Shown here: in pieces, positions 44,769 through 54,897 of the stretch | Position numbering within the stretch: position 1 is the first letter of the stretch | Layout of the letters: every line of letters begins with the position of its first letter | Origin: Acidiphilium rubrum | Lineage (GTDB): Bacteria > Pseudomonadota > Alphaproteobacteria > Acetobacterales > Acetobacteraceae | Assembly (NCBI RefSeq): GCF_900156265.1 | Contig: NZ_FTNE01000026.1 | Span: 1 to 55,355, forward strand | DNA: 55,355 bases | Direction of reading: 5' to 3' | Notes under the pieces: generated by a model | What the model saw: the letters and a program-made list of their open reading frames with translations, nothing else | What the model was told of the DNA's origin: nothing | Databases searched by the model: none | Position numbers and translations under genes: made by a program

Positions 44769-46277
44769 ATGAGTGATTTCACCATCGCCACGCCCATCGC
44801 CGGCCCCAACGCCGGCCCCAACGGCGGCTCGGTCGCCGCACCCTACTCCGATCGGCTCTATAACGACGATCTCGCCCCCCTCGCGCGGATCGGGTCCAAT
44901 GTCGCGCCAGGAAAATCGCAAAGCTGGACCTGGTACAACATTTTCGCGTTCTGGATGGCAGACGTCCACAGCGTCGGCGGCTACGTCTTCGCCGCCAGCC
45001 TCTTCGCCTCCGGCCTCACCGGCTGGCAAGTCCTGATCAGCCTGCTGATCGGCATCTCCATCGTGCAGGTCTTCGCCAATCTGCTCGGTAAAATGGGCCA
45101 GCAGGCAGCCGTGCCCTACGCCGTGGTCGCCCGCGTCTCGTTCGGCGTGTTCGGCGCCAACATCGCCGCGGTCATACGCGGCGCCATCGCCGTCGTCTGG
45201 TACGGTATCCAAACCTACCTCGCATCCGGCGCCCTCAACATCCTGATCCTGAAATTCGATCCCGCCAGCGCCGCCCTCGAAAAAACCAGCATCCTCGGCC
45301 TGTCGGAACTCGGCTGGATCAGCTTCCTCCTCGTCTGGTCGCTCCAGGCCATCGTGTTCTGGCAGGGCATGGAAAGCATCAAACGCTTCATCGACTGGGC
45401 CGGCCCCGCCGTCTACGCCGTCATGTTCGCCCTCGCCCTATGGATCGTGTCGCAAGCCGGCATCGCCCACATCAGCTTCAACCTCGCCGCCACCCCGCTC
45501 CACGGCGGCGCCATTCTCTGGCAGATGATCCTGGCCATCGCCCTGGTCGCCGGCTACTTCGCGGGCCCCACGCTGAACTTCGCCGATTTCGCCCGTTACT
45601 GCGGCAGCAACGCCGATGTCCGCAAAGGTAATTTCTGGGGCCTGCCAGTCAATTTCCTGCTGTTCTCCATCGTCACCGTCGTCGTCGTCTCCGGTACCAT
45701 CCCGGTGTTCGGCCACATGATCACCGATCCGGTCATCACCGTCGGCAAAATCGGCAACACCACCGCCGCCCTGCTCGGTGCCTTCACCTTCGTCACCGCC
45801 ACCATCGGCATCAATATCGTCGCGAACTTCGTCTCGCCCGCCTTCGATTTTTCGAACTGCGCCCCCCGCCGGATCAGCTTCCGCATGGGCGGCATGATCG
45901 CAGCCGTCGGCTCGGTCTTCCTGATGCCGTGGAACCTGTTCAACAACCCCGCCGCCATCCACTACACGGTCGATCTGCTCGCCGCTGCGATCGGTCCGCT
46001 CTACGGCATCCTGCTCGCCGATTTCTACCTGGTGAAAGCCCAGAAAATCGACGTCCCCGCCCTGTTCAGCGACCGCCCCGGCGATACCTATTGGTACAGC
46101 AACGGCTTCAACCCGGTCGCGGTCAAATCCGTCATCATCGCCAGCCTGATCGCCATCGGCACCGGCTTCGTCCCCGGCGAATTGAAAACCTTCTCGCTGT
46201 TCATCGGCGGCATCATCGCCGCCGGACTCTACGTCATGCTGTCACGCGGCCGCGGCGACACCACACAAGGTGCCTGA
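44769..46277 (+). CDS. NCS1-family nucleobase/hydantoin:cation symporter
   Basis: This 502-residue permease has about twelve helices. Family features are an N-terminal YNDDLAPLA segment, WTWYNIFAFWMADVHSVGGY in helix 1, NFADFARYC and the cytoplasmic GILLADFYLV near the C-terminus. Such proteins import uracil, allantoin, cytosine, hydantoins or vitamins with H+ or Na+. CAGGAG precedes the ATG. It is divergent from the GntR/FCD regulator with shared operator-like sites. No nucleobase-degrading enzyme lies nearby to indicate the substrate. Confidence 0.92.
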   Translation: MSDFTIATPIAGPNAGPNGGSVAAPYSDRLYNDDLAPLARIGSNVAPGKSQSWTWYNIFAFWMADVHSVGGYVFAASLFASGLTGWQVLISLLIGISIVQVFANLLGKMGQQAAVPYAVVARVSFGVFGANIAAVIRGAIAVVWYGIQTYLASGALNILILKFDPASAALEKTSILGLSELGWISFLLVWSLQAIVFWQGMESIKRFIDWAGPAVYAVMFALALWIVSQAGIAHISFNLAATPLHGGAILWQMILAIALVAGYFAGPTLNFADFARYCGSNADVRKGNFWGLPVNFLLFSIVTVVVVSGTIPVFGHMITDPVITVGKIGNTTAALLGAFTFVTATIGINIVANFVSPAFDFSNCAPRRISFRMGGMIAAVGSVFLMPWNLFNNPAAIHYTVDLLAAAIGPLYGILLADFYLVKAQKIDVPALFSDRPGDTYWYSNGFNPVAVKSVIIASLIAIGTGFVPGELKTFSLFIGGIIAAGLYVMLSRGRGDTTQGA

Positions 46278-49074: not shown

Positions 49075-49450
49075 CACAGGCGGCTGGGCCGTTTGCCGCG
49101 GGGGTAAAGCAAGTAAAGCGGGGGGCTTTGCCCCCTCGACCCCCACTAAGGGCGGAGCCCTTAGAACCCGCTAGTTTTAGGCAAGGGGAGGGCGCTGCCT
49201 GGGACTTTCCGTCGATCTGACCTGGGTCGCCCTCCCCTTGCCTAAAACTGGTGGATTTTAAAGCCCGGCGAGCGTCGCGCGCCTCATCATATGGTAGCGG
49301 GCATCTTGCCCGCGGGGCCTTTAACGGGGTCCAGGAGCGGAGGAGCCGAAGGTTCCAGCGATGCTCTTCATCGCTGGAATGGCTCCGGAGGGAGAGCCCC
49401 TGGCCTTCCTTGCTTTACCCCCGCGGCAAACGGCCCAGCCGCCTGTGCTA
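49072..49450. repeat. composite palindromic repeat supplying two convergent stops
   Basis: Perfect 42-bp outer arms (49072-49113 and 49409-49450, beginning TAGCACAGGCGGCTGGGCCG) enclose nested GC-rich hairpins: GGGGGCTTTGCCCCC, CTAAGGGCGGAGCCCTTAG, AGTTTTAGGCAAGGGGAGGG opposed to its complement near 49231-49250, and TTCCAGCGATG opposed to its complement. Each arm starts with TAG, the stop codon of the GST gene on one side and of the NCS1 permease on the other. Confidence 0.9.
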
Positions 49451-50815
49451 AACCCGCATCGCTTCCTGGGGGCGTTCGAATTTGGCGGCGGTTTGGTTGG
49501 AGGTGCTGAGGGCGAGGTATGCGATGCCGGCGACCAGGGCCGAGACCAGGAACGAGATATCGCCGAACCCGGGATGGGCGGCGGCGAAGGCGCCGACGAA
49601 CAGCGGGTACTGGTTGAAAAACGGCACGCTGGCGGCGATGCCGATGATCCAGGCGACGAATCCGGCGCTGATCGTGCCGAGCCGTGAGTGTCGCCGCCCA
49701 AAGTGGGCGAGCAGGGTGACGACGATCCAGGGTGCGGTCCAGTAGCCGAGGAAGAACAGGAAATCCTCGTAATTCTTGATGAAATTGGTGGCGGCGAGCA
49801 CGGAGATGATGGTGCCGATGACGCCGCACATCAGCGCGGCCTGGCTTTGTTTCAGCCGGATGCCGAGTGCCAGCGACGAGAGTGTGGCCGAGTAGATGTT
49901 CAGGATATTGGCGCTGATGGTGCCGATCACGATGGCGATGATGAGCGGCGCGTGAAACCAGTGCGGCATCCAGGCGGTGAACAGGTCGGATGGTTTGCTG
50001 AGGGCGACGGTCGCGCCGATGATGGCGCCAAGCACTTCCATCCAGATGCACGAGATCAGCGTGCCCCAGAACGCGTTGATGAACACGGCGCGCTTGGTAG
50101 CACCGTTATCGCCTTGCTGGCGTAGGTAGCGGGTGTAGTCGGATGAATAGGGAATCCACCCCATCACATAGGCCGCCACCACGGAGGTGGTCAGAATGAA
50201 CGCGCCGGAGGTGCCGCCGACGTTCTTGAGCAGTTTCGGCTGAGCGGCGGGCAGATGGCCGATATGCGCTGCGGCAATCACACTCATCACGACGAAAATC
50301 GCAACCAGCAAATAGAAAAAATATTTCTCGGCCGCGTGGATCAGGTCATGCCCGACCGCGGCAATCGCCACCTGCACCGCGCACAGCACCAGGATATTCA
50401 GGATCAGCCCGGTGCCGAGCATGTATTGCAGCGCGTAGCCGCCGATGATCGTATTGACCCCGAACCAGGAGAAGCCACCGAAAAAATTCAAAAATGAGGG
50501 TAGTTTATTGCCCTTGCGCCCAAACCAGGCCGCACCTTGAATCATCTGCGGCAGCCCGTACTCGACCCCGAGGGTTGAAAACAACGCCAGCAGGAGCGCG
50601 CCGATCACATTGCCCAGCACGATCGCGATGATCGCATCGGTCGCGGAAAGCCCGAACGCGCCGGTTGCGAGCGCGCCGGTGGTGATCGTCGCGAATTCCA
50701 CATTCGCCGCCATCCACAGGCCGAACAGCGCCCGGGGCCGCCCGTGTGCCTCCGCCGGCGTAACGGGCATGATCCCTTTGCTCTCGATTGTCAGCGGTGC
50801 CGCTTCAGCCATCAT
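49448..50815 (-). CDS. NCS1-family purine/cytosine-type permease
   Basis: This 455-residue permease has about twelve helices and is nearer to the cytosine permease (CodB/PF02133) branch than the one at 44769. ALFGLWMAANVEFATITTGAL marks helix 1 (split here at residues 29-49), with GVEYGLPQMIQGAAWFG, a YSSDYTRYLR loop and WTAPWIVVTLLAHFG. It probably imports a purine or pyrimidine with a cation. I prefer the ATG at 50815 after GGGAG. Its stop lies in the repeat at 49072-49450. Confidence 0.88.
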   Translation of the reverse strand: MMAEAAPLTIESKGIMPVTPAEAHGRPRALFGLWMAANVEFATITTGALATGAFGLSATDAIIAIVLGNVIGALLLALFSTLGVEYGLPQMIQGAAWFGRKGNKLPSFLNFFGGFSWFGVNTIIGGYALQYMLGTGLILNILVLCAVQVAIAAVGHDLIHAAEKYFFYLLVAIFVVMSVIAAAHIGHLPAAQPKLLKNVGGTSGAFILTTSVVAAYVMGWIPYSSDYTRYLRQQGDNGATKRAVFINAFWGTLISCIWMEVLGAIIGATVALSKPSDLFTAWMPHWFHAPLIIAIVIGTISANILNIYSATLSSLALGIRLKQSQAALMCGVIGTIISVLAATNFIKNYEDFLFFLGYWTAPWIVVTLLAHFGRRHSRLGTISAGFVAWIIGIAASVPFFNQYPLFVGAFAAAHPGFGDISFLVSALVAGIAYLALSTSNQTAAKFERPQEAMRV

Positions 50816-50929
50816 GTCGCTCCCAAGCTCGATCTGTTGCGCCGAAACAGGCAAGATTCGTGCCTGTTCAAAGCACGCCTGTCATTCCTTTGTCATTCTA
50901 ATCTGCCCTAAACTTAGGCACGCAAAGAT

Positions 50930-50978
50930 TAAGAAAGCGTTGTCATCTGGAAAAAAGAGCCAGAAACTTTTCGAACTC
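50930..50978. repeat. degenerate AT-rich hairpin half-repeat
   Basis: TTGTCATCTGGAAAAAAGAG followed by CCAGAAACTTTTCGAACTCA resembles the half repeats elsewhere but has lost most of the hairpin. It abuts the mtnP stop codon. Confidence 0.45.
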
Positions 50979-51861
50979 AGCCCAGCATCCGGCCGGCCAC
51001 GGCGTCGAGGCGCGCCACTACTTCGGGGTCGCGCGCGGCGGACGGCGTGATGATCGCGTAATCCAGCGCATGATCGCACCCGGCGCTGCACACATGGCGC
51101 TCACCGCCCAGCCCCGGCACCACCGCCCGCACCAGGCCGCGCGCCTTGTCGGCATTGCCGAGCAGCACCTTCACCACCTGTTCCACCGTCACCGCCTCAT
51201 GTTCGGTGTGCCAGCAGTCGAAATCGGTCACCATCGCCACGGTCGCGTAACAAATCTCCGCCTCGCGCGCGAGCTTTGCCTCCGGCATATTGGTCATGCC
51301 GATCACCGAACAGCCCCAACTTCGATATAAATGGCTCTCCGCCCGCGTCGAAAACTGCGGCCCTTCCATCGCCAGATAGGTCCCGCCGCGTGTCACCGGC
51401 AGGCCCTGCTCAACCGCCGCGCGCTCCAGCGCATCGCCCAGCCGCCGGCACACCGGGTCCGCCATCGACACATGCGCGACACAGCCGGCGCCGAAAAAAC
51501 TCTTGGCCCGCGCGAAGGTCCGATCGATGAACTGATCCACGATCACGAAATGCCCCGGCGGCAATTCGCCCTTCAGGCTGCCGACCGCCGAGAGCGACAG
51601 AATATCCGTCACCCCCGCGCGCTTCATCACGTCGATATTGGCCCGGTAGTTCAGATCGGTCGGCGATAATTTATGCCCCCGCCCGTGCCGCGGCAGAAAT
51701 ACCACCGAAACGCCGTCCAGCGTGCCGAACAGCAACTGGTCCGAAGCCTCGCCCCACGGGCTCGAAACCCGCTGCCAGCGTTGATCCTCCAGCCCCTCGA
51801 TATCATACAGGCCTGAGCCGCCGATGATCCCGATCACCGGCGTCCGCACATCATCGCTCAT
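50977..51861 (-). CDS. mtnP: 5'-methylthioadenosine phosphorylase
   Basis: This 294-residue PNP-family enzyme splits methylthioadenosine to adenine and methylthioribose-1-phosphate in methionine salvage. IGIIGGSGLYDIEGL, PRHGRGHKLSPTDLNYRANI, LSAVGSLK, MEGPQFSTRAES, GMTNMPEAKLAREAEICYA and DFDCW occur in the usual order. It overlaps the cytochrome c1 gene by 4 bp (ATGA) and is thus the last gene of the bc1-like operon. This link recurs in acetic acid bacteria as far as I recall, but its meaning is unclear. Confidence 0.95.
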   Translation of the reverse strand: MSDDVRTPVIGIIGGSGLYDIEGLEDQRWQRVSSPWGEASDQLLFGTLDGVSVVFLPRHGRGHKLSPTDLNYRANIDVMKRAGVTDILSLSAVGSLKGELPPGHFVIVDQFIDRTFARAKSFFGAGCVAHVSMADPVCRRLGDALERAAVEQGLPVTRGGTYLAMEGPQFSTRAESHLYRSWGCSVIGMTNMPEAKLAREAEICYATVAMVTDFDCWHTEHEAVTVEQVVKVLLGNADKARGLVRAVVPGLGGERHVCSAGCDHALDYAIITPSAARDPEVVARLDAVAGRMLG

Positions 51862-52505
51862 CGCGTCATCCTCGTCGCCATCACAACAAACCCGACCACG
51901 CCGAGCACCAACAGGAAAAAAATCGCCCGCAGCCCGGTCGCCTTGCGCTCATCGAGCGTCGGGTCCGCCGTCCAAGCCAGGAACGCCGCGACATCATGCG
52001 CCATCACCGGCACGCTCGCCGCCTTGCCATCCGCCAGCATCACGGACCCCGGCTGCAACGCCGGTGCCATCGCAATCTGCCCGCCGGGATACGCGATATT
52101 GTAATAATGCCCCGGCAGCATCGTCATATTCGGCAGCGCGGGCCGATAACCGGTCATCAAATCGAACACCGCAGCCGCGCCACGCCGATGCCCCGCCTCG
52201 TACAGCGACAGATCCCCGGCAATCGCACCGCCCGCGTCCGGCTTGGTCTTCGACAAGGCGGGCGGCTTGCCCTTGGCCAGCAGCGCCGTCACCTGCGCCG
52301 GCGTCAGCCCCAGCGACTGTAAATCACCGGGCGATACCAGGTTCAAACTATGGCACCGCGCGCAATTCGCCTGATAGGTCGCAAACCCGACCTGCAGTTC
52401 CGCCTTGTCGAACCCGCCGAACCACGACTGGAACCCGAACTGCGGCGCCCCCGCAAACGCCACCGCCGGCAGTAGCACCGCCAACCCGACCAGAATCGCC
52501 CGCAT
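51858..52505 (-). CDS. petC: cytochrome c1-like subunit
   Basis: This 215-residue protein has a signal peptide (about 1-18), a c-type heme motif CARCH at residues 48-52 and the heme Met ligand in GQIAMAPAL. A VAAFLAWTADP segment and a single C-terminal anchor helix (AIFFLLVLGVVGFVVMA) follow. These are all cytochrome c1 features, although the protein is shorter than the usual 250 or so residues. It overlaps cytochrome b by one base (TGATG) and mtnP by four. Both heme ligands are intact, in contrast to the altered cytochrome b next to it. Confidence 0.9.
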   Translation of the reverse strand: MRAILVGLAVLLPAVAFAGAPQFGFQSWFGGFDKAELQVGFATYQANCARCHSLNLVSPGDLQSLGLTPAQVTALLAKGKPPALSKTKPDAGGAIAGDLSLYEAGHRRGAAAVFDLMTGYRPALPNMTMLPGHYYNIAYPGGQIAMAPALQPGSVMLADGKAASVPVMAHDVAAFLAWTADPTLDERKATGLRAIFFLLVLGVVGFVVMATRMTR

Positions 52506-53683
52506 CACGCGACCCCCATTGTCGTTGCCGCACGCGGCCGTTCGAACATCGTCACCAACGGCGTCACCACCAGAAAATGGATGAAAAACCAGATCGTCGC
52601 CAAATCCACCACGGCAGACCACACGCCGCCCGCCGGTGCCGCCGCCGCAATCGCCAGCACCGCCACATCGAGCGCCAGCACCACCACGAACCCGGCGTAA
52701 ACCGGCCGCGCACCAACGGCCGAACCTTCCCCGCGATCCAGCCACGGCAGCGCGCCCACGAGCACCAGCGCCAGAATTGTCAGAAACGCGCCACCCCCCG
52801 GCGTCAGCCCGGCCCGCGCAAATCCATGAAATACCAGCAGATACCACGGCGGCACCGATTGCAACGGCACCGCCAGCGCGTCCGGCAGCACCGGCGCGAC
52901 CGGATAACCCAACCCCGGATCAACCGTAATTATCAACCCGAAAATCAGCGCGAACAGCAAAAAGGCCCCGAACAACTGCGGCGCATAGGCCGCCCGCGGC
53001 ACCAGCGGCCCCGGTTGCGGCGGCGCCACCCGCACGGCGGCATAGCCCAGCGCCGCGATCAGCAGCACCAGAAACCCGATCGCGACATGCGCCATCGTCA
53101 TATGCGCCACACTGGTCGGCCCCAGCCCATCGCCGCCCAGAAAATCCTGCGCCGCCGATACCCCGATCACCGGCACCGTCGCGACATGCGCCGCCATCGC
53201 CAGCATCGCCGCCTGCGCATCCGGCCCCCCGGTCATCGCAAACCCGTAAAACCCGACCACCAGGAACGCCGCGAACCGCACGATCTCGATCACCCAGGCC
53301 AATTCGCGCCGGTTGCGATACGCCGCGTGATAAATCCCGTGAAACAGCGCCCAATACACCACGATGAACAGCATCGTCGCGCCGTCGCGGTGCAGATCGA
53401 CCATCAACCACCCGAACGGCACGGTCCGCGCATACTCGACCATCGATAGCGCCGCACCCCCCGGCGTCGGCACATAGGCCAGCCCGAGCCAGATACCGCT
53501 CAACGTCAGCACTGCCAGCGCCACGCCCACCATCGCACCGAACGAACATGCAAACGGCAGATTCTCAGGCACCTGATGATCCAGCCACACCGCCCGATAC
53601 CACGCCGCCAGCGGCAACCGCGCCGCCAGCCACCCCGGCGCCGGCTGCGCGGCACCACCCAGGCCCGATCGCGCGTCACTCAT
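52505..53683 (-). CDS. petB: divergent cytochrome b lacking heme bH ligands
   Basis: This 392-residue protein has eight predicted helices and aligns with bc1 cytochrome b without gaps through helices A to D. The heme bL ligands are kept: H98 (in VDLHRDGA, where the classical protein has HANGAS) and H199 (TMAHVAIG). The bH ligand positions, 14 residues after each, are A112 and G213 instead of His. The PWG motif of the Qo site reads TGG (151-153) and the PEWY Glu is Pro279 (VPPWYLLVF). The fold and the C-terminal domain are otherwise intact. It can hardly perform a normal bifurcated Q cycle. It is cotranscribed with a small TM protein and a c1, with overlapping stops and starts. The gene is well kept, so it is probably functional with an altered role. 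Confidence 0.85.
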   Translation of the reverse strand: MSDARSGLGGAAQPAPGWLAARLPLAAWYRAVWLDHQVPENLPFACSFGAMVGVALAVLTLSGIWLGLAYVPTPGGAALSMVEYARTVPFGWLMVDLHRDGATMLFIVVYWALFHGIYHAAYRNRRELAWVIEIVRFAAFLVVGFYGFAMTGGPDAQAAMLAMAAHVATVPVIGVSAAQDFLGGDGLGPTSVAHMTMAHVAIGFLVLLIAALGYAAVRVAPPQPGPLVPRAAYAPQLFGAFLLFALIFGLIITVDPGLGYPVAPVLPDALAVPLQSVPPWYLLVFHGFARAGLTPGGGAFLTILALVLVGALPWLDRGEGSAVGARPVYAGFVVVLALDVAVLAIAAAAPAGGVWSAVVDLATIWFFIHFLVVTPLVTMFERPRAATTMGVA

Positions 53684-53901
53684 GAATGCAACCCTTTCAG
53701 CATCACGGCCGCACCCTTGCCCACCGGCGCAGCACTCATCGCCGCCGCCGGCGGTCGCAATGCCGCCGCAAATCCCCAAACCAGCGCCAACACGGCCACC
53801 AGCACCAGGCCACCGAACAGGATTGGCAGAAACGGCCGCCGCTCCTCATCCAAATGTGCTCCGTGTTCAGGCCCGCCCGAGCCCGCGCCGATTTCAGCCA
53901 T
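53680..53901 (-). CDS. small single-TM protein at the Rieske position
   Basis: This 73-residue protein has a charged N-terminus (HLDEERRP), one transmembrane helix (about residues 24-47) and a short tail. In canonical petABC operons this position encodes the Rieske iron-sulfur protein. Here there are no Cys or His pairs for a cluster. The pattern RRPFL... VW... then AMSA resembles the N-terminal anchor of alphaproteobacterial Rieske proteins (RRDFL... VWP... AMSS), so it may be a Rieske reduced to its anchor. The stop overlaps the cytochrome b start (ATGA). It is probably a subunit of the same complex. The similarity is weak and short. Confidence 0.6.
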   Translation of the reverse strand: MAEIGAGSGGPEHGAHLDEERRPFLPILFGGLVLVAVLALVWGFAAALRPPAAAMSAAPVGKGAAVMLKGLHS

Positions 53902-54003: not shown

Positions 54004-54897
54004 ATGACCGCAGCACGCCCCGCCATCCCACACGAATCCCTTAAACCCGCCGCCCAGGCCTGGTTCGCCGAACTGCGCAACCGCATCTGCGCCGCCTTCG
54101 AATCGATCGAGTCCGAGCACGCCGGCGCGATGGCCGACCGCCCCCCCGGCCGCTTCACCATCACGCCCTGGACGCGCGAACCCGACGGCAAAAACCACCT
54201 CGAAGGCGGCGGCGAAATGGGCGTTATGCGCGGCCGCGTGTTCGAAAAAGTCGGCGTCAACATCTCCATCGTCGGCGGCACCTTCAGCCCCGAATTCGCC
54301 AAATCCATCCCCGGCGCCGCCGAAGACCCCCGCTTCTGGGCCGCCGGCATCAGCCTGGTCTCCCACATGCACAGCCCGCGCGTGCCCGCCGCCCACATGA
54401 ACACCCGCATGATCGTCACCTCGAAAGGCTGGTTCGGCGGCGGCGGCGACCTCACCCCCCTCCAACCCGGCACCGAAGCCGCCCAGGCCGACGCCGCCAC
54501 CTTCCACGCCGCCTTCCAGCACGCCTGCGACGCCCACAACCCCGAATACTATCCAAAATTCAAAAAATGGTGCGACGAATACTTCTTCCTCCCCCACCGC
54601 AACGAAACCCGCGGCGCCGGCGGCATCTTCTACGACTACCTCGAAGCCAACCCCGAAGCCGATTTCGCCTTCACGCGTGACGTCGGCCTCGCCTTCCTCG
54701 AATCCTACCCCGCCATCATCCGCCGCCGCATGAACGAGGCCTGGACCGCCGAAGAACGCGAAGCCCAACTCATCCGCCGCGGCCGCTACGTCGAATTCAA
54801 CCTCCTCTACGATCGCGGCACCACCTTCGGCCTCAAAACCGGCGGCAACACCGAAGCCATCCTCATGAGCATGCCGCCTGAGGTGAAGTGGCCTTAG
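54004..54897 (+). CDS. hemF: oxygen-dependent coproporphyrinogen III oxidase
   Basis: This 297-residue cytoplasmic enzyme converts coproporphyrinogen III to protoporphyrinogen IX with O2, for heme synthesis. Family motifs include the [10 protein letters not shown] segment, [38 protein letters not shown] and [16 protein letters not shown]. Length is standard. It is divergent from the bc1-like operon. Presence of the aerobic enzyme fits an organism living with oxygen. It is followed by a hairpin half-repeat. Confidence 0.96.

What the first reader, a model, noticed from the sequence alone, without database searches (positions are those of the whole stretch)
51858..53901. bc1-like operon with a cytochrome b that has lost both heme bH ligands
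The cytochrome b aligns without gaps to Rhodobacter-type cytochrome b through helices A-D. It keeps the bL ligands H98 and H199 but has A112 and G213 at the two bH positions. PEWY reads PPWY and the PWG motif reads TGG. Cytochrome c1 keeps CARCH and its Met ligand, and genes overlap tightly, so this is not decay. A complex with only bL and c1 cannot bifurcate electrons in the normal way. It might pass electrons one way between a quinol or another donor and cytochrome c, or serve as a scaffold. I know of no description of such a complex, but I cannot search.
Basis: partly seen in the sequence, partly recalled or inferred. Interest (0 to 1): 0.82.

Follow-up and report, generated by a model that had tools for sequence, protein, structure and literature searches.

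The report
Stripped-down cytochrome bc1 of an Acidiphilium
An acid-loving bacterium keeps the genes of a normally vital energy-converting membrane enzyme although several of its working parts are gone, including one of its two membrane hemes and the head of its iron-sulfur arm; the missing heme was already in print, while the leftover stump of the iron-sulfur arm was not found in the papers searched.

Summary
The genome belongs to the genus of Acidiphilium sp. PA. Its only PF00033 cytochrome b keeps both bL histidines (H98, H199) but has A112 and G213 at the bH positions; 0 of 41 analysed loci in two sister genera, window included, keep both bH histidines. This loss is not new: Degli Esposti et al. 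2023 (PMC10715153) report it for Acidiphilium as a "deranged" bc1 and say the Rieske gene is lacking. Four points go beyond the parts of that paper I read. (1) The 73-codon ORF overlapping petB is the Rieske membrane anchor without its Fe-S head; 6 of 11 petB-bearing genomes of the genus have such a headless form. (2) G153 pairs a bH-less cytochrome b with a Rieske protein that has all four cluster ligands, against the paper's "always associated". (3) bL ligands (81 of 82) and c1 CxxCH (39 of 39) stay, while 3 of 10 c1 in the genus lose the Met region. (4) G304 has lost petABC but keeps Complex I and oxidase genes. Best reading: a non-bifurcating, probably non-catalytic membrane core kept as a scaffold; slow decay is the main rival.

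The parts
53680..53901 (-). headless Rieske (petA remnant): 73 codons holding only the N-terminal membrane anchor (RRPFLPILFGGLVLVAVLALVWGFAAALRP); its stop overlaps the petB start
   Evidence: profile of 36 Rieske N-termini (window sequence not in it) ranks this ORF first of 760 window ORFs, E 1.4e-9, next 0.29; no Pfam match at E<=1; same position as petA in relatives; dN/dS 0.133 vs Acidiphilium sp. PA
52505..53683 (-). petB, cytochrome b, 392 aa, bL site kept, bH site lost
   Evidence: PF00033 E 2.1e-20, PF00032 E 2.9e-13; AF2 model pLDDT 87.5, pTM 0.86; Foldseek best match R. sphaeroides bc1 cytochrome b
53390..53392 (-). codon of His98, heme bL ligand 1 (kept)
   Evidence: His in 41 of 41 loci of the two sister genera and 29 of 29 canonical
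53348..53350 (-). codon of Ala112, heme bH ligand 1 position (His lost)
   Evidence: His in 0 of 11 genus loci, 8 of 30 sister-genus loci, 29 of 29 canonical
53087..53089 (-). codon of His199, heme bL ligand 2 (kept)
   Evidence: His in 40 of 41 loci (exception L054, Leu, from a 77% complete genome) and 29 of 29 canonical
53045..53047 (-). codon of Gly213, heme bH ligand 2 position (His lost)
   Evidence: His in 0 of 11 genus loci, 10 of 30 sister-genus loci, 29 of 29 canonical
52841..52852 (-). PPWY (canonical PEWY) of the Qo site
   Evidence: Pro at the Glu position, then WY, in 41 of 41 loci
51858..52505 (-). petC, cytochrome c1, 215 aa
   Evidence: PF02167 E 7e-41; dN/dS 0.117 vs Acidiphilium sp. 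PA over 195 codons, 0.15 with a longer upstream start
52350..52364 (-). CARCH heme c1 attachment motif
   Evidence: CxxCH in 10 of 10 genus and 29 of 29 sister-genus c1 long enough to align

Best explanation
This is a bc1-derived membrane core that can no longer run a Q cycle. Shown from sequence: cytochrome b has ligands for heme bL only, the Rieske subunit is cut back to its membrane anchor, and c1 keeps its heme motif and Met. Inferred: the three proteins still assemble as a small membrane complex that is kept as a scaffold or docking site, for example for cytochrome c next to the aa3 oxidase, the photosynthetic reaction centre or Complex I, with bL mainly as a structural cofactor. It is useful but not essential. 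Electron bifurcation and quinol-to-c1 transfer are predicted to be absent in this genome.
For: Catalytic parts go while the membrane core stays. Of 6 His invariant in canonical cytochrome b only the two bL His are kept, against a mean retention of 39% over 178 canonical-invariant columns. The Rieske head is lost and the anchor kept in 6 of 11 genomes; on the tree this happened at least twice, since headless L042 is sister to full-length L043 and the other five share a clade with full-length L038 (my reading). The c1 Met is lost in 3 of 10 while CxxCH and the C-terminal anchor region stay. In the sister genus, full-length Rieske-like proteins keep both disulfide Cys in 29 of 29 while three of four cluster ligands are changed in all 29. 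Purifying selection against Acidiphilium sp. PA: anchor 0.133, petB 0.131, petC 0.117. G304 has hemF next to mtnP without pet genes but has NuoH and COX1 matches, so the complex is dispensable. The window's genome has a COX1 gene beside a CuA motif and PufL/PufM-family genes that such a core could dock.
Against: Nothing here shows that the proteins are made, bind heme or assemble. In R. sphaeroides and R. capsulatus a bL-ligand mutant (H198N) still assembles as bc1 (PMC4330944, passages), so bL need not be an obligatory assembly cofactor, and a pure scaffold does not explain why its ligands are kept so strictly. By dN/dS petB and petC evolve faster than flanking hemF and mtnP in all six pairs compared, most in G302/G196 (0.51 and 0.48 against 0.14 and 0.04); petB medians are 0.476 in the sister genus against 0.283 in canonical pairs. 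This also fits slow decay. G304 shows that neither Complex I nor oxidase genes depend on it. The anchor has only 73 codons and 6 nonsynonymous differences.
Confidence: 0.45

Rival explanations
1. A slowly decaying relic: bc1 lost its use after quinol oxidases took over, and the genes persist only because deletion has not yet happened.
For: Loss of Rieske ligands, Rieske head and c1 Met region across relatives; petB and petC dN/dS above hemF and mtnP in all six pairs compared; petB dN/dS higher in the sister genus than in canonical pairs (medians 0.476 and 0.283); complete loss in G304; bd oxidase in 12 of 13 genomes; PMC10715153 calls the complex deranged or non-functional.
Against: petB frames are open in all 11 genus loci; dN/dS 0.12-0.13 in the window pair, near hemF at 0.107; bL His (81 of 82) and CxxCH (39 of 39) stay while the petB proteins diverge to 30-60% identity with the window's.
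Confidence: 0.32
2. A working one-way complex: quinol or another donor is oxidised at the Qo/bL side and electrons reach c1 without bifurcation, as in an antimycin-blocked enzyme.
For: bL and c1 ligands kept; WY of the Qo motif in 41 of 41; G153 has all four Rieske ligands with a bH-less cytochrome b, so such a state exists in the genus; the idea is raised in PMC10715153.
Against: In the window the Rieske head is absent and no other bc1-type Rieske was found. Without it the bL-to-c1 distance is too long for direct transfer (general knowledge, not computed). The R. [quoted passage not shown] PMC10715153 itself holds that the Rieske changes prevent such paths.
Confidence: 0.13
3. Polar retention: petABC stay because mtnP, which overlaps petC, needs their transcription or translation.
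For: petC stop and mtnP start overlap in the window; the order hemF-petABC-mtnP is shared with G153.
Against: It would not preserve heme ligands; G304 has mtnP next to hemF without petABC.
Confidence: 0.05

Closest known systems
Deranged bc1 complex of acidophilic Acetobacteraceae (Acidiphilium, Acidocella), PMC10715153
   Same: Same genus; both bH histidines lost; no functional Rieske protein; c1 intact; structural role and linear transfer already discussed (abstract, passages, sections 16 and 17).
   Different: The paper says Acidiphilium lacks the Rieske gene and that bH loss is always associated with Rieske mutation. Here the gene survives as a headless anchor, G153 has a bH-less cytochrome b with all Rieske ligands, and c1 is reduced in three relatives. 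Its supplementary figures were not seen.
Rhodobacter-type cytochrome bc1 (petABC)
   Same: Gene order, cytochrome b fold, c1 with CxxCH and Met.
   Different: No bH site, no Rieske head, PPWY instead of PEWY.
bH knockout (H212N) of R. capsulatus bc1, PMC4330944 (passages)
   Same: Cytochrome b with bL but without bH.
   Different: Laboratory mutant with the other bc1 parts in place; G153 is its nearer natural counterpart.

Membership tests
Cytochrome bc1 complex (Q-cycle enzyme) | cytochrome b fold (PF00033 + PF00032) | tested here: met
Cytochrome bc1 complex (Q-cycle enzyme) | two bis-His heme b sites | tested here: not met
   bL kept, bH A112/G213; no other conserved His
Cytochrome bc1 complex (Q-cycle enzyme) | Rieske subunit with 2Fe-2S head | tested here: not met
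   only the anchor in the operon; the four other PF00355 matches are two ring hydroxylases, one Rieske/pyridine-nucleotide reductase and one 115-aa stand-alone Rieske ORF (NirD-like by my reading, not tested)
Cytochrome bc1 complex (Q-cycle enzyme) | c1 with CxxCH and Met ligand | tested here: met
Cytochrome bc1 complex (Q-cycle enzyme) | quinol:cytochrome c reductase activity, two b hemes per c1 | not testable with these tools
   needs purified protein
Deranged bc1 of acidophilic Acetobacteraceae (PMC10715153) | loss of both bH His in an Acidiphilium cytochrome b | tested here: met
Deranged bc1 of acidophilic Acetobacteraceae (PMC10715153) | Rieske (ISP) gene absent in Acidiphilium | tested here: inconclusive
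   Fe-S head absent, but a 73-codon anchor remnant is present; 5 of 11 genus loci have a full-length gene
Deranged bc1 of acidophilic Acetobacteraceae (PMC10715153) | cytochrome c1 intact | tested here: met
   met in the window; Met region lost in L041, L042, L043

The most novel reading that the evidence does not exclude
The genus holds natural stages of a bc1 complex being dismantled: bH goes first (G153: Rieske ligands and c1 intact, a true one-way bL/Rieske/c1 enzyme), then Rieske ligands or the whole Rieske head and the c1 Met loop go, in an order that differs between lineages (L043 lost the Met region with a full-length, ligandless Rieske). The endpoint is a selected, non-catalytic heme-bL membrane scaffold with a headless Rieske anchor that serves the oxidase or the reaction centre.
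Probability: 0.25. Interest if true: 0.75.

Novelty: new member of a known kind. Interest (0 to 1): 0.45.

Why it matters
Whether a bc1 can be selected for without bifurcation is an open bioenergetic question, and laboratory bH knockouts are not a stable natural state. This genus offers natural counterparts: bH-less with an intact Rieske (G153), ligandless Rieske, headless Rieske, and complete loss (G304). It also sharpens a puzzle: the window's genome has PufL/PufM-family genes and a COX1 gene beside a CuA motif but no functional bc1 that I could recognise to pass electrons from quinol to cytochrome c. Either phototrophy here is not cyclic in the usual way or another route exists; other quinol:cytochrome c enzymes, such as alternative complex III, were not searched for.

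Tried and rejected
H115 is His in 2 of 11 genus loci (Arg in 6, Tyr in 3) and 2 of 30 sister-genus loci; no His besides H98 and H199 is conserved in the 41.

A second cytochrome b or Rieske elsewhere in the genome: one PF00033 match only; four PF00355 matches, none of bc1 type.

Gene fission suggested by 'stops inside' in the sister genus: rejected where one search shows the frame (its output was cut in the middle); the stops seen lie at the natural end of petB.

Complex I stabilisation (proposed in PMC10715153): not supported as a strict requirement, since G304 lacks petB and petC but has NuoH-family matches. G299 (83% complete) also lacks pet matches, but hemF is not found there either, so it gives no information.

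Headless form against reaction-centre genes: 6 of 6 headless and 1 of 5 full-length genomes have PF00124 matches (Fisher p 0.015). Not corrected for relatedness, and three of the four full-length genomes without a match are 78-94% complete; a lead only.

Passages of PMC8790237 and PMC12654162 gave nothing used as evidence. Rows left out: L027 from petB counts (cut by its contig end), L077 and L078 (same contigs as L037 and L039), L053 from Rieske counts (no Rieske ORF found; only about 400 bases lie upstream), L044 and L059 from c1 counts (too little 3' sequence). The L049 frame was wrong and corrected. The Met regular expression was faulty and was replaced by the alignment.

Full report
What is there. 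The window is contig C58 of a 3.98 Mb genome listed at 100% completeness. The closest named relative at this locus is Acidiphilium sp. PA, petB 90% identical over residues 1-392; genome G263, on whose contig of the same length the same match lies, is of the same genus as the window's genome. On the minus strand, between hemF (54004-54897, +; PF01218) and an MTA-phosphorylase-type gene (50977-51861, -; PF01048; here called mtnP), lie three overlapping ORFs: a 73-codon ORF (53901-53680), petB (53683-52505) and petC (52505-51858). Starts and stops were checked.

Ligands. The alignment holds 29 canonical petB loci of the family (the best-scoring loci, L027 left out), 11 loci of the genus (all 11 with a match among 13 genomes) and 30 of the sister genus (36 of 38 genomes match; loci were fetched for 30). 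The first bL column is His in 29 of 29, 11 of 11 and 30 of 30; the second in 29 of 29, 11 of 11 and 29 of 30. The first bH column is His in 29 of 29, 0 of 11 and 8 of 30; the second in 29 of 29, 0 of 11 and 10 of 30. No locus of the 41 keeps both bH His. The sister genus is probably Acidocella; that is inferred from its fit to the published Rieske description and rests on no record. Of 178 columns invariant in the canonical set the mean share kept is 39%, and 21 are kept in at least 40 of 41; both bL His are among those 21. A tree without the four ligand columns gives the two genera as supported clades that together form one clade beside the canonical set, and needs at least 6 and 5 changes of state at the two bH columns (the program warns of long branches).

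Wider family. 28 genomes that I chose from those with weaker scores among the 299 gave 29 loci: His at both bL columns in 29 of 29, at the bH columns in 27 of 29 and 29 of 29. The two exceptions, Asn at the first bH column, are the two genomes of genus g54 in that set. So partial bH loss also occurs outside the two sister genera. Most of the 299 genomes were not examined for ligands.

The small ORF is the Rieske anchor. A profile of 36 Rieske N-termini, without the window sequence, finds this ORF first of 760 window ORFs at E 1.4e-9; the next is at 0.29. Four of the five other headless ORFs also match (E 1.5e-10 to 5e-6); the fifth, L041, is weak (0.14) and rests on position and its hydrophobic segment. 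All six end within 3 bases of the petB start as I set it. Of the 11 petB loci of the genus six are headless, one (G153, L038) has all four Fe-S ligands and both disulfide Cys, and four (L043-L046) are full length with none of the four ligands but both disulfide Cys; one of these four was scanned against Pfam and had no match (L045). In the sister genus 29 of 30 loci could be scored: three of the four ligands are changed in all 29, the second Cys ligand is kept in 19, both disulfide Cys in 29. The G153 protein matches PF00355 and PF10399 but has Ala and Phe at the canonical Ser/Tyr positions near the cluster; that these lower its potential is general knowledge. Headless forms arose at least twice: L042 is sister to full-length L043, and the other five share a clade with full-length L038 (my reading).

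c1. CxxCH is present in 10 of 10 genus and 29 of 29 sister-genus proteins long enough to align. The Met ligand is present in 7 of 10 and 29 of 29; L041, L042 and L043 have lost that region.

Selection. Against Acidiphilium sp. PA, dN/dS (Nei-Gojobori) is 0.133 for the anchor, 0.131 for petB and 0.117 for petC, against 0.107 for hemF, 0.049 for mtnP and 0.048 for the permease gene. Results against strong constraint: in all six pairs petB and petC exceed hemF and mtnP; petB runs from 0.13 to 0.53, and in G302/G196 petB is 0.51 and petC 0.48 with hemF 0.14 and mtnP 0.04. Over pairs with dS 0.1-0.9, petB has median 0.476 (range 0.063-0.686, 106 pairs) in the sister genus and 0.283 (0.006-0.525, 252 pairs) in the canonical set; 16 pairs of the genus (dS 0.05-0.9) run from 0.13 to 0.67. 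The method ignores codon bias and inflates values for distant pairs in such GC-rich genomes, so close pairs with flanking controls weigh most here.

Genome context. Over the 13 genomes of the genus, COX1-family matches occur in 13 of 13, at least one of them near a CuA motif in each (pattern match). NuoH-family matches occur in 13 of 13, bd oxidase in 12 of 13, c1 in 11 of 13 and PF00124 reaction-centre matches in 8 of 13, the window's genome among them. In G304 (99% complete) hemF and mtnP lie about 106 bases apart with no pet gene between: a natural loss.

Structure. An AlphaFold2 model from 48 aligned sequences has pLDDT 87.5 and pTM 0.86; it matches R. sphaeroides cytochrome b chains at query-normalised TM 0.85-0.88.

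Literature. PMC10715153 (abstract, passages, sections 16 and 17; supplements not seen) states that Acidiphilium lacks the Rieske gene and both bH histidines, that bH loss is always associated with Rieske mutation in acidophilic taxa, that c1 is intact, and proposes a structural role for Complex I and iron oxidation as a bypass. PMC5322542 (passages) also says Acidiphilium has no Rieske protein. No listing pointed to a Rieske anchor remnant; titles and abstract starts were seen there, not full texts, and the library holds only openly licensed papers, so this is weak evidence of absence.

Mechanism. Without bH there is no path to a Qi site, and without a Rieske head there is no carrier from Qo to c1. 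What the series keeps is the membrane core: cytochrome b with bL ligands, the c1 anchor region and CxxCH, and either a full-length Rieske-like protein or its anchor. That is what a scaffold predicts. Against it, a bL-ligand mutant of Rhodobacter still assembles (PMC4330944, passages), constraint is relaxed, and G304 does without the complex; slow decay therefore stays the main rival. G153 is the one place where a one-way bc1 is plausible on sequence.

Noticed in passing
L038 and L127 (G153): Relative of the same genus with a four-ligand Rieske protein, complete c1 and a bH-less cytochrome b: a natural counterpart of the laboratory bH knockout.
   Followed up: partly
L152, L153 (genomes G130, G217, genus g54): Another genus of the family has Asn at the first bH position only, with Gln in place of Glu in the PEWY motif: a separate, partial bH loss.
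   Followed up: no
L126 (G304) 2328-2435: petABC missing between hemF and mtnP in a 99% complete genome of the genus that has Complex I (NuoH) and COX1 matches and no PF00124 match.
   Followed up: yes
G000:C34:193259-194972: The window's genome encodes two PF00124 reaction-centre proteins but no bc1 with its redox sites intact was found, so cyclic photosynthetic electron flow has no recognised return path.
   Followed up: partly
L041, L042, L043: Cytochrome c1 shortened to 135-205 aa with the Met-ligand region missing but CxxCH and the C-terminal anchor region kept.
   Followed up: partly
window 49448-50854 and 44769-46277: Two separate cytosine/purine-type permease genes (PF02133) about 3 kb apart.
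   Followed up: no
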